Assembly (NCBI RefSeq): GCF_030268045.1
Contig: NZ_BSDC01000001.1
Span: forward strand, 1,550,001 to 1,614,000
Length of the DNA stretch: 64,000 nt
Direction of reading: 5' to 3'
DNA from: Geothrix edaphica
GTDB lineage: Bacteria; Acidobacteriota; Holophagae; Holophagales; Holophagaceae
The notes under the pieces are model-generated. The model made no database searches and was not told where the DNA came from. It was given only the letters and a program-made list of their open reading frames with translations. How positions within the stretch are numbered: the first letter of the stretch is position 1; every line of letters begins with the position of its first letter. Shown in pieces: positions 18,394 through 48,329 of the stretch. The position numbers and the translations under genes were made by a program.

Positions 18394-20115
18394 CTACACG
18401 ATGGCCAGCAAACCCACCAGCCAGAAGCTCAGGTCCACGCTCAGCTCGAAGCGGTGTTTCCCGGCGGTGAACCGCTCGTGGAACAGCCAGAGGTACAGCA
18501 TCGGATAGGCCGCGCAGACCACCAGGACCAGGGCCACAGCCAGGGGGTGCCCATGCTGGCGGTTGTCGAAGGTGAGCCAGAGGGTGCCGGCGAGCAGCGT
18601 CCCAAGGAGCCCCACCAGCACCGCCTTGGTGGCCGACTTGCCCATGAGGATCGGCAGGGTCTCCTTCCCCACGATCTGGTCGTTCTGCATGTCCCGGATC
18701 TCGTAGATCACCGTGCGGACGAAGGCCAGGACGCCCACGAGGAAGATGGCCGCGAACGCGCGGAGGTCCCAGATCCGGCCCTCCTGCCAGACGGGCATGA
18801 TGACGGCCACCGTGGCCAGGGCCAGGGCCACCACCACGTCCTTGGAACCCGGGATGTTCCGCAGGCTGAAGGTGCGCCCGCCCAGTTGGAAGCGCCGCTT
18901 GTAGCCAGCGCCCACCACGGAGGCGCCCGCCGCCACGGCCAGGGCCTTAAGGCCCAGCGTGGCCGAGAGTCCCAGGGTGAGGGCCAGGGCCACCAGGCCC
19001 GCGCCCAGCAGCACCTTGCGGTTGCGCTCCAGGAACCGCGCCCGGGCCGGGCCCTTGGCGCCGACCCCCAGCGGGTCCAGGAAGGGGGTCAGCAGGTACA
19101 TGGCCAGCACGTAGGTTCCCGCCAGGAGCGGGTAGCGCCAGCCCAGGGGCAGGCCCAGCCACTTGTGCACGCCGAGGGTCATGAAGGCCGCCCCCGTGGC
19201 CAGCAGCGACGAGCTGCCGAAGGCCGCCTGGAGGAAGCTGCGCCAGCGGCTGGGACCGTCGCCCAGCTGCTCCAGCACGTCCACCACCTCATCCACCAGC
19301 CAGGTGGGGGTGGAGGCGCCGGCCAGCACGCCCACGGTCTCGCGGCCGGTGAACGCCCGGAGATCCAGTTCCGCGGCGGTTTCGACGTACTGTACGGGCT
19401 TGCCATAGTGATGCGCCAGCTCGGCCAGGTGCTTGGTGTTGCTGGAGGCCTTGCCGCCCACGACGATGACCGTGTCGACCGTCCGGGCCAGCTCCCGAGC
19501 CTCATCCTGGCGCATCCAGGTGTCCTCGCAGATGGTGTTCTCGAACACGGCATCCACGGCGCGGGTCCGGATGTAGTCGGTGATGGTGTGGTAGTCCTTC
19601 ACCGTGAAAGTGGTCTGGGCCACCACCAGCACCTTCTTGAGCTGCTCGTCCGTCAGGGCCTCGGCCTCGGCCATGTTCGACACGATGAGGCTGCCGCTGT
19701 CCGCGAAGCTGCGGTGGGCCACACTCTCTGCATGGCCATGGCTGCCCAGGATCACCGTGAAGTAGCCCTTGGGGCTCCACTTCTTGATCTTGTGGTGGAC
19801 CTTGGCCACCTCGGGACAGGTGGCGTTGACGATCTTCAGCTCGCCCTTGGCCTGGCGCTCCTTGAGGCCCCGCAGGTCCTGGATGGGGATGCCGTGGGCG
19901 CGGATCACCACCGTGCCCGCCTGCACCTTGTCCGGCGCCTCCGCCACGGCCACACCCCGCCTGCCGATGAGCTCGAGCGCCTGGGGATTGTGGATGAGCG
20001 GACCCAGCGTCTGCACGGTGCGGCCATCGTTGCGCACCGAGGCCTCCAGCACCGCGTCCATGGCGCGCTTCACGCCCCAACAGAAACCGGCGGTCTTGGC
20101 GACGATCACTTTCAT
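18394..20115 (-). CDS. ispH: IspH (HMBPP reductase) fused to a UbiA-type prenyltransferase domain
   Basis: Two-domain protein, 573 residues; ordinary IspH is about 280-320. Residues 1-285 are IspH, the last MEP-pathway enzyme, which makes IPP and DMAPP. All three [4Fe-4S] cysteines are present: C12 (AGFCWGVK), C100 (NATCPEV) and C196 (TICEDTW), as is the TxxR/K-type region. Residues 300-573 are polytopic (about 8 helices) and resemble the UbiA superfamily. The second Asp-rich motif is clear (IRDMQNDQIVGKETLP, 473-488); the first is weakly conserved (FLDPLG near 345 with ARARFLERNR). The reading frame is continuous, with no sign of assembly error. An IscR-like site covers its promoter. Confidence 0.9.
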   Translation of the reverse strand: MKVIVAKTAGFCWGVKRAMDAVLEASVRNDGRTVQTLGPLIHNPQALELIGRRGVAVAEAPDKVQAGTVVIRAHGIPIQDLRGLKERQAKGELKIVNATCPEVAKVHHKIKKWSPKGYFTVILGSHGHAESVAHRSFADSGSLIVSNMAEAEALTDEQLKKVLVVAQTTFTVKDYHTITDYIRTRAVDAVFENTICEDTWMRQDEARELARTVDTVIVVGGKASSNTKHLAELAHHYGKPVQYVETAAELDLRAFTGRETVGVLAGASTPTWLVDEVVDVLEQLGDGPSRWRSFLQAAFGSSSLLATGAAFMTLGVHKWLGLPLGWRYPLLAGTYVLAMYLLTPFLDPLGVGAKGPARARFLERNRKVLLGAGLVALALTLGLSATLGLKALAVAAGASVVGAGYKRRFQLGGRTFSLRNIPGSKDVVVALALATVAVIMPVWQEGRIWDLRAFAAIFLVGVLAFVRTVIYEIRDMQNDQIVGKETLPILMGKSATKAVLVGLLGTLLAGTLWLTFDNRQHGHPLAVALVLVVCAAYPMLYLWLFHERFTAGKHRFELSVDLSFWLVGLLAIV

Positions 20116-46790: not shown

Positions 46791-48329
46791 ATGGACGATT
46801 CCAGGGAAGGCCGGCCCCGCAAGATCCTGGTGATCCTGGGCCACCCCCGCCGGGAGAGCTTCTGCGGCGCCCTGGCCGGGGCCTACCTCGAGGGCGCCGG
46901 AAGCGCGGGCCACCAGGCCCGGCGGCTGGATCTGGCGGACCTCGCCTTCGACCCGGATGTCCGGATGCCCTCGCCCCGGGACCAGGGCCTGGAACCGGAC
47001 CTGGCCCGGGCGCAGGCACTGATCCTCTGGGCGGATCATCTGGTCTTCGTCTACCCCGCCTGGTGGGGCACCCTGCCCGCCCTGCTCAAGGGATTCCTCG
47101 ATCGGGTGCTCACCCCAGGCTTCGCCTTCGCAGCGGACGAGGCGGACCCCTCGGCCTGGGCCAAGCTTCTGAAGGGCCGCTCGGCCCACCTGCTGGTGAC
47201 CATGGACACCCCGCCCTGGGTGTACCGGTTCGTCTACCGCCAGCCCGGCCACCAGGCCATGCGCCGGGCGACGCTGGGCTTCTGCGGCATCGGGCCCACC
47301 TTCATCTCCACCTTCGGGCCCGTGCTGTCCTCTTCGCCGGAGCAGCGGGCCGGGTGGCTGGAGGGTGTCCGGAGGGAGCCGCTCCGGCTCGCGGACCGGC
47401 TTCGCCGGGACGCAGTCCGGCGGCGTGCCGGGGCCTGGCTGAGGCTGCTCCGGCTGCAGTTCTACCCCATGGCCTGGGTGGCTTACACCATCGGCGCACT
47501 GCTGGCCTGGCGCCACGGGGGGACCTTCTCGCCGCAGGTCTACTGGCTCGGCTACCTCTGCCTCTTCCTGATGGAGGCGCTGACGGTCCTCAGCAACGAG
47601 TGGTTCGATCAGGGCACGGACCGGCTCAACCATCATGCAGGCCCCTTCAACGGCGGCAGCCGGGTGCTGGTCGAGGGGGAACTGGCCCCCGGCAGTGTCC
47701 GGCGGGCGATGCTCGGCCTGACCCTGCTGCTGGGCCTGGCCCTGGCGGTGCTCGCCGCCCTGCCCGGCCCCGCCGGACCCGGCCCGATGGCCATGCTCGC
47801 CCTGGCGGTGCTGGCGGTGGGCTATACCGCCCCGCCCCTGAAGCTCAGCTACCGCGGCCTGGGCGAGCTCGATGTGGGTCTCACCCATAGCTTCGCGGCG
47901 ATCCTCTGCGGCGGGCTCCTCCAGTCCGGCGTCTGGCGGGACCCGCACCTCTGGCTCATCGGGGCGCCGCTCTTCTTCGCCACCGTCGCGGCCATCACCC
48001 TGTCGGCCCTGCCGGACCACGAGGCCGACCGGATGGTGGCCAAGCGGACCCTGGCGGTCCTCCTGGGCCGCCGGGGGGCGGCGCTGACGGCCCTGGGTTT
48101 CGTGGCCGTCGCCGCCATCTGCGGTGTGGTCTGGCAGCAGCGTGGCCTCTTCGGCGGGCGGAGCGGACTCGCCGTCTTCCTGGCCATCCCCCACGGCCTC
48201 CTGCTGGTCCGGGCCATCTGGCGCTACCTGCGCCGGGGCGCGCCCTGCGAGCGGATCAACGGGATCATGGTCCTGGCCCTGACCTACCTCCTGTGGTTCG
48301 GGATCATCCCCCTGGCCGGCCTGTCTTGA
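46791..48329 (+). CDS. NAD(P)H-quinone oxidoreductase (flavodoxin fold) fused to a UbiA prenyltransferase
   Basis: 512 residues. Residues 10-200 are a flavodoxin-like NQO/KefF-type domain: KILVILGHPRRESFCGAL (FMN/FAD phosphate site) and VYPAWWGTLPALLKGFLDRV with the usual aromatic stretch. Residues about 215-512 are a polytopic UbiA/MenA-type prenyltransferase: first Asp motif NEWFDQGTDRLN (269-280) and GPFNGGSRVL, second motif LPDHEADRMVAKRTL (407-421). Both motifs are intact, so prenyl transfer should be active. The product may be a quinone that the N-terminal domain reduces; this is inference. The ribosome site CGGAGGG is good. Confidence 0.92.
   Translation: MDDSREGRPRKILVILGHPRRESFCGALAGAYLEGAGSAGHQARRLDLADLAFDPDVRMPSPRDQGLEPDLARAQALILWADHLVFVYPAWWGTLPALLKGFLDRVLTPGFAFAADEADPSAWAKLLKGRSAHLLVTMDTPPWVYRFVYRQPGHQAMRRATLGFCGIGPTFISTFGPVLSSSPEQRAGWLEGVRREPLRLADRLRRDAVRRRAGAWLRLLRLQFYPMAWVAYTIGALLAWRHGGTFSPQVYWLGYLCLFLMEALTVLSNEWFDQGTDRLNHHAGPFNGGSRVLVEGELAPGSVRRAMLGLTLLLGLALAVLAALPGPAGPGPMAMLALAVLAVGYTAPPLKLSYRGLGELDVGLTHSFAAILCGGLLQSGVWRDPHLWLIGAPLFFATVAAITLSALPDHEADRMVAKRTLAVLLGRRGAALTALGFVAVAAICGVVWQQRGLFGGRSGLAVFLAIPHGLLLVRAIWRYLRRGAPCERINGIMVLALTYLLWFGIIPLAGLS

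What the first reader, a model, noticed from the sequence alone, without database searches (positions are those of the whole stretch)
18394..20115. IspH fused in frame to a UbiA-like membrane domain
Seen: one uninterrupted frame of 573 residues with all three IspH cluster cysteines, then about eight transmembrane helices with a clear second Asp-rich UbiA motif (IRDMQNDQIVGKETLP). The first Asp motif is degenerate. Inference: the enzyme that makes IPP/DMAPP is held at the membrane next to a prenyl-transfer domain, which could channel isoprenoid to a quinone or lipid.
Basis: partly seen in the sequence, partly recalled or inferred. Interest (0 to 1): 0.7.

Follow-up and report, generated by a model that had tools for sequence, protein, structure and literature searches.

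The report
IspH anchored by eroded UbiA-like domain
A bacterium's only IspH, the last enzyme making isoprenoid building blocks, is permanently joined to a membrane domain related to prenyl-transferring enzymes; such joins have been known since 2015, but in this phylum the membrane half has repeatedly lost metal-binding residues of its active site, which points to a membrane anchor or sensor more than to a second working enzyme.

Summary
The fusion is real. It lies on the minus strand (18394-20115, 573 aa): IspH (1-284) plus a nine-helix UbiA-fold domain (about 289-573). It is the genome's only IspH. Every sampled Geothrix/Holophagaceae genome with a match has the fusion, as do one other family of the class and four more distant families of the phylum. 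The join keeps the same length in 60 of 66 sequences, so a frameshift or assembly artefact is excluded. The architecture is not new: Rao et al. 2015 (PMC4746011) described 47 IspH-UbiA fusions, all from sulfate reducers, with two DXXXD motifs. New here is the state of the UbiA half. All 11 IspH catalytic positions checked are intact in 66/66 fused proteins, but the four UbiA metal ligands (N68/D72/D198/D202 of AfUbiA) are all kept in only 6/66, and different lineages lost different ones; a control family (MqnP-type UbiA) keeps them in 15/15. The window has T-D-D-D. Most likely it is a membrane-tethered IspH whose UbiA half is a degenerate prenyltransferase with a still-conserved pocket (Tyr405, Lys425, Asp479). 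Direct channelling to a quinone is not supported: MqnP-like and MenA-like genes exist separately.

The parts
19264..20115 (-). IspH (LytB) catalytic domain, residues 1-284 of the 573-aa protein; sole IspH of the genome
   Evidence: Pfam LYTB 3-281 and TIGR00216 over cut-off; one match in the genome; fold match to 3szu, Z 33; all 11 catalytic positions checked invariant in 66/66 fused proteins
19249..19263 (-). join, about residues 285-289 (GDGPS), same frame and codon bias on both sides
   Evidence: third-position GC 0.92 / 0.94 / 0.96 before, across and after the join; W272-Y335 spacing is 64 residues in 60 of 66 homologues
18397..19248 (-). UbiA-fold membrane domain, residues 290-573, nine helices
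   Evidence: Pfam UbiA 47.7 bits; fold match to 4od5, Z 18.2; median dN/dS 0.21 within Geothrix against 0.11 for the IspH half
19063..19089 (-). degenerate first Asp-rich motif, residues 343-351 TPFLDPLGV (AfUbiA N68 -> T343; D72 -> D347; third Asp lost)
   Evidence: alignment with other UbiAs; state counts N68: S 27, T 16, N 15, A 5, other 3 of 66
18901..18912 (-). residues 402-405 (GAGY), Y405 equivalent to AfUbiA Y139
   Evidence: Y in 64/66; rank 3 of 284 columns by conservation
18838..18855 (-). IPGSKD, residues 421-426, with K425 equivalent to AfUbiA K146
   Evidence: K in 63/66; invariant in 50 Holophagaceae sequences
18652..18699 (-). second Asp-rich motif and following loop, residues 473-488 IRDMQNDQIVGKETLP (D475, D479)
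   Evidence: D479 kept in 64/66, D475 in 58/66

Best explanation
The gene encodes the cell's only IspH, permanently tethered to the cytoplasmic membrane by a C-terminal UbiA-fold domain. That domain descends from a prenyltransferase but has lost part of its metal and diphosphate site, so it most likely serves as a membrane anchor and docking module, with a still-selected and probably weakened prenyl-diphosphate pocket, and not as an efficient second enzyme. IspH would then release IPP/DMAPP, or take electrons, at the membrane surface. Shown here: the fusion, its conservation, sole IspH, intact IspH residues, UbiA fold, purifying selection, recurrent ligand loss. Inferred: membrane localisation, loss of transferase activity, benefit of tethering.
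For: Single IspH in a 99%-complete genome, with IspG also present. Fusion in all sampled Holophagaceae with a match and in families f2, f9, f20, f27 and f28; the fused IspH domains lie together on one side of a branch (support 93/88). IspH residues 66/66 intact; the four UbiA ligands all kept in only 6/66, with different losses in different lineages: N68 in most Holophagaceae, D72 in f2/g2, D198 in f9, both D198 and D202 in f20, D72 and D198 in f27 and f28; on the dereplicated tree the minimum numbers of changes are 4, 6, 3 and 1. Control: MqnP-type UbiAs of the same phylum keep all four in 15/15. In AfUbiA, N68A and D72A abolish GPP binding and the equivalents in EcMenA abolish function (PMC4106721); UBIAD1 N102S, the same position as the window's T343, lowers GGPP affinity (PMC9314443). 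In L155, L165 and the paralogue L087 the UbiA half is no longer detected by Pfam (below cut-off in L157) while IspH stays strong, and L165 still folds like UbiA (Z 11.6). Two second copies (L087, L157) end after about the seventh helix and keep a full IspH.
Against: The pocket is not random: Y405, D479 and K425 rank 3, 4 and 15 of 284 UbiA columns, and the conserved columns cluster in the cap loops, more than a bare anchor should need. The window itself loses only one of four ligands (T for N), and family f2/g4 plus two Holophagaceae (L070, L089) keep all four. The dN/dS of about 0.21 means selection, not decay. No activity or localisation was measured.
Confidence: 0.5

Rival explanations
1. 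True bifunctional enzyme (the 'Rosetta stone' reading): the UbiA half is an active prenyltransferase with a relaxed first motif, and the fusion raises local IPP/DMAPP for a lipid or quinone product.
For: Second motif, D347, Y405 and K425 are kept in the window and nearly all Geothrix; all four ligands kept in f2/g4, L070 and L089; human UBIAD1 is active although its first motif is NTYYDFSKG (PMC9314443), so the third Asp is dispensable; Rao et al. 2015 preferred this reading for the sulfate-reducer proteins.
Against: Loss of ligands that are essential in AfUbiA/EcMenA in 60/66 proteins; both second-motif Asp lost in f20; UbiA half undetectable by Pfam in L155, L165 and L087; quinone and heme O roles already covered by other UbiAs.
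Confidence: 0.28
2. Prenyl-diphosphate sensor: the UbiA-fold pocket binds a long prenyl diphosphate without turning it over and changes IspH activity or stability, as human UBIAD1 senses GGPP for HMG-CoA reductase.
For: Diphosphate-binding Lys and the Tyr near the scissile bond are the best kept pocket residues while metal ligands drift; fixed spacing between the halves; the UBIAD1-HMGCR precedent couples a UbiA-fold protein to a rate-limiting isoprenoid reductase (PMC9314443).
Against: No ligand or regulation data; in AfUbiA, GPP binding needs Mg2+ and the first motif, which is what is eroded; the precedent works by protein degradation in eukaryotes.
Confidence: 0.14
3. Passive fusion: an ancient gene joining kept only because it is harmless, with no functional link.
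For: Other IspH fusions (S1, helicase, kinase) share no obvious pathway (PMC4746011); the UbiA half evolves faster than IspH.
Against: Kept across at least six families with constant spacing and purifying selection on the UbiA half.
Confidence: 0.08

Closest known systems
IspH-UbiA fusion proteins of sulfate-reducing bacteria (Rao et al. 2015, PMC4746011)
   Same: IspH followed by a C-terminal UbiA-like domain in one chain; separate quinone prenyltransferase elsewhere in the genome
   Different: The 2015 set is reported only from sulfate reducers and with two DXXXD motifs; here the host is Holophagaceae/Acidobacteriota, the first motif is T-P-F-L-D, and ligand loss recurs across the phylum
IspH-RPS1 fusions (Clostridia, Fusobacteria; PMC4746011)
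   Same: Long IspH with an intact catalytic half and a fused C-terminal module
   Different: Partner is ribosomal protein S1, soluble, not a membrane domain
UbiA-superfamily prenyltransferases AfUbiA (4tq3) and ApUbiA (4od5)
   Same: Nine-helix fold (Z 18.2 to 4od5); Tyr, Lys and second-motif Asp equivalents kept
   Different: First motif Asn replaced by Thr; about 11% identity; no activity known
UBIAD1-HMGCR complex (PMC9314443)
   Same: A UbiA-fold membrane protein physically coupled to a key isoprenoid-pathway reductase; works-like analogy only
   Different: Two separate eukaryotic proteins, regulated degradation, mevalonate pathway

Membership tests
IspH / LytB reductase | family profile over curated cut-off | tested here: met
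   PF02401 266.4 bits (cut-off 24.5), TIGR00216 252 bits (cut-off 187.85)
IspH / LytB reductase | three cluster Cys and HMBPP-site His/Glu/Thr/Ser/Asn | tested here: met
   C12, H42, H74, C100, H128, E130, T169, C196, S224, N226, S268 present, invariant in 66/66; alignment to 3dnf
IspH / LytB reductase | HMBPP reduction with a 4Fe-4S cluster | not testable with these tools
   needs biochemistry
UbiA superfamily (fold) | Pfam UbiA over cut-off and nine-helix UbiA fold | tested here: met
   47.7 bits (cut-off 34.2); 4od5 Z 18.2, 248 of 274 aligned, rmsd 3.2
UbiA prenyltransferase (enzyme) | first Asp-rich motif NDxxDxxxD, at least the Mg2+ ligands N68 and D72 | tested here: not met
   T343 replaces N68; D347 keeps D72; third Asp lost
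UbiA prenyltransferase (enzyme) | second Asp-rich motif DxxxD | tested here: met
   D475-MQN-D479
UbiA prenyltransferase (enzyme) | Mg2+-dependent prenyl transfer | not testable with these tools
   needs biochemistry
IspH-UbiA fusion of Rao et al. 2015 | IspH N-terminal, UbiA domain C-terminal, one chain | tested here: met
   paper
IspH-UbiA fusion of Rao et al. 2015 | two DXXXD motifs in the UbiA domain | tested here: not met
   only the second motif reads DXXXD in the window
IspH-UbiA fusion of Rao et al. 2015 | host is a sulfate-reducing anaerobe | not tested
   relatives named by record titles are Geothrix/Holophagaceae; their metabolism was not examined here
IspH-UbiA fusion of Rao et al. 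2015 | CDD subgroup PT_UbiA_5 | not testable with these tools
   CDD is not among the libraries; closest NCBIfam models are PRK13591/PRK12872/MenA-like, far below cut-off

The most novel reading that the evidence does not exclude
The UbiA half is a pseudo-prenyltransferase that binds long prenyl diphosphates and feeds this back on IspH: a bacterial, single-chain counterpart of UBIAD1 sensing GGPP for HMG-CoA reductase, giving product feedback on the last step of the MEP pathway at the membrane.
Probability: 0.12. Interest if true: 0.8.

Novelty: new variant of a known kind. Interest (0 to 1): 0.4.

Why it matters
IspH-UbiA fusions have had no known function since 2015, and the standing idea is a two-enzyme 'Rosetta stone'. 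A phylum in which the join is fixed while the UbiA metal site is lost repeatedly separates tethering or sensing from catalysis, and supplies natural variants (all ligands kept, one lost, several lost, truncated) to test it. IspH is usually treated as a soluble drug target; a membrane-bound form changes how it should be expressed and assayed.

Tried and rejected
Artefact/frameshift/two genes: rejected, because the same open frame is found in dozens of independent genomes. Main quinone prenyltransferase role: judged unlikely, since an MqnP-like gene (TIGR01475 282 bits, cut-off 180.8) and a MenA-like gene are separate. Complete loss of the first motif: too strong, since D347 (the D72 ligand) is kept. 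Pure neutral decay of the UbiA half: not favoured, given dN/dS about 0.21 and pocket columns among the most conserved. PDB sequence search with the UbiA profile found only chlorophyll synthase weakly; structure comparison was needed. One search used the wrong strand by mistake and is not used. A search for Geothrix menaquinone papers gave nothing useful.

Full report
WHAT IS THERE. The protein has 573 residues. Pfam finds LytB/IspH at 3-281 and UbiA at 369-546, both over their cut-offs; NCBIfam's IspH equivalog is over its cut-off, while UbiA-type equivalogs are far below theirs. Codon-position composition is continuous across the join, and no start codon near the join has an obvious ribosome site. 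The AlphaFold2 model (26-sequence alignment, mean pLDDT 84.8, pTM 0.72) has an IspH fold followed by nine helices. It matches solved IspH at Z 33.0 (3szu, 281 residues) and solved UbiA at Z 18.2 (4od5, 248 of 274 residues, rmsd 3.2).

WHERE IT COMES FROM. The window lies in a 3.16 Mb genome; its closest named relatives are Geothrix (Holophagaceae, Acidobacteriota). There is one IspH match in the genome and an IspG, so this fused protein is the only IspH found.

HOW CONSERVED IT IS. Of 41 genomes 39 had a match. All Geothrix genomes with a match, and family f2 of the same class, give a fused frame; the third family of the class (f3) has IspH alone. A phylum sample shows the fusion also in families f9, f20 and f27 and f28. 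The spacing between the last IspH landmark (W272) and the second membrane helix (Y335) is 64 residues in 60 of 66 sequences. On a tree of IspH domains (49 rows) all 26 fused ones fall on one side of a branch (93/88, not starred), with f1+f2 as a starred clade; f3 IspHs are of another type, near that of E. coli. The nearest single-domain IspHs (L172, L175, L176) are directly followed by, and overlap, an S1-domain gene.

ALREADY DESCRIBED. Rao et al. 2015 (PMC4746011) reported 47 IspH-UbiA fusions, all in sulfate reducers, with two DXXXD motifs and no known function, and proposed that IspH supplies a UbiA-like prenyltransferase. Acidobacteria, Geothrix and Holophaga do not occur in that paper's main text. 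I found no later study of these fusions in the held library.

WHAT IS DIFFERENT HERE. In AfUbiA the Mg2+ ligands are N68 and D72 (first motif) and D198 and D202 (second); N68A and D72A abolish GPP binding, and the equivalents are needed for EcMenA function; K146 binds the diphosphate and Y139 sits at the scissile bond (PMC4106721). An alignment with UbiAs of the same phylum places these at T343, D347, D475, D479, K425 and Y405 (the two motifs by their sequence, Y405 and K425 by position before and after the fourth-to-fifth-helix loop, so these two are less certain). Over 66 non-identical fused proteins, N68 is kept in 15, D72 in 54, D198 in 58, D202 in 64, Y139 in 64 and K146 in 63; all four metal ligands are kept in 6. 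Losses are lineage-specific: Asn to Ser/Thr/Ala in most Holophagaceae; D72 in f2/g2; D198 in f9; D198 and D202 in f20; D72 and D198 in f27 and f28; in L165 N68, D72 and D198. On the dereplicated tree at least 4, 6, 3 and 1 changes are needed for the four ligands. In contrast all 11 IspH catalytic positions are invariant in 66/66, and 15/15 MqnP-type UbiAs from the same phylum keep both motifs. The counts of sequences are dominated by Geothrix; the tree counts are the fairer measure. In L087, L155 and L165 Pfam no longer finds UbiA and in L157 it is below cut-off, while LytB stays at 252-291 bits; a model of L165 (UbiA half about pLDDT 60, so less certain) still matches UbiA best among membrane folds, Z 11.6. 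Two genomes hold a second fused copy that ends after about the seventh helix (L157 in a one-contig genome, L087).

BUT THE POCKET IS NOT DEAD SEQUENCE. Within Geothrix the median dN/dS is about 0.21 for the UbiA half and 0.11 for IspH. The most conserved UbiA columns include Y405 (rank 3 of 284), D479 (4), Q477 (6), G402 and K425 (15), in the loops that cap the pocket on the cytosolic side (placement of the cap from PMC9314443).

MECHANISM. I favour a tethered IspH: the UbiA fold fixes the enzyme at the inner face of the membrane, where prenyl synthases and their lipid products are handled, and its own transferase chemistry is weak or lost (0.5). Next is a working bifunctional enzyme (0.28), then a prenyl-diphosphate sensor on the UBIAD1-HMGCR pattern (0.14; PMC9314443), then a passive fusion (0.08). 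The window's T343 sits at the same position as UBIAD1 N102S, which lowers GGPP affinity; this makes weak activity more likely than none in Geothrix, and loss more certain in f20, f27 and f28.

QUINONES. The genome has four other UbiA-family genes: one MqnP/UbiA-like, one heme O synthase-like, one MenA-like (in the window at 47487-48236, plus strand) and one unnamed. Every genome with the fusion that was searched for UbiA has at least one other UbiA. The fused domain is therefore unlikely to be the quinone prenyltransferase.

VERDICT. Observation confirmed, with the strand added. Interpretation partly supported. Not a new architecture; a new taxonomic range and a new state of the UbiA half.

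Noticed in passing
L172 1465-3814, L175 1480-3814, L176 1210-3814: The closest single-domain IspHs of the phylum are followed by an overlapping gene with five S1 domains (Pfam run on L172 and L175): the two partners of the known IspH-RPS1 fusion as adjacent genes.
   Followed up: partly
L157 6418-7968 (minus) and L087 5027-6601 (plus): Second IspH-UbiA copies in two Holophagaceae genomes (one a single-contig genome): IspH residues intact, UbiA half shortened after about the seventh helix and weak or undetectable by Pfam.
   Followed up: partly
L071-L076: Family f3 of the same class has a single-domain IspH of another type, grouping near that of E. coli, suggesting replacement by transfer.
   Followed up: partly
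L165, L166 (IMG/VR contigs): Contigs filed as viral carry an IspH fused to a UbiA-fold domain with most metal ligands lost; neighbours of L165 look bacterial, so they are probably host DNA.
   Followed up: partly
L063 8587-10520 (minus): In family f2 a ketoacyl-ACP synthase III-like gene and a xylose isomerase-like TIM-barrel gene lie directly upstream of ispH-ubiA.
   Followed up: no
window 47487-48236, plus strand: Another UbiA-family gene (MenA-like by NCBIfam, far below cut-offs) lies in the same window, 27 kb away.
   Followed up: partly
G000:C1:72729-73466 (L023): The Geothrix heme O synthase-like UbiA has an unusual second motif (LHAEGYEKAG) without the usual Asp pair.
   Followed up: no
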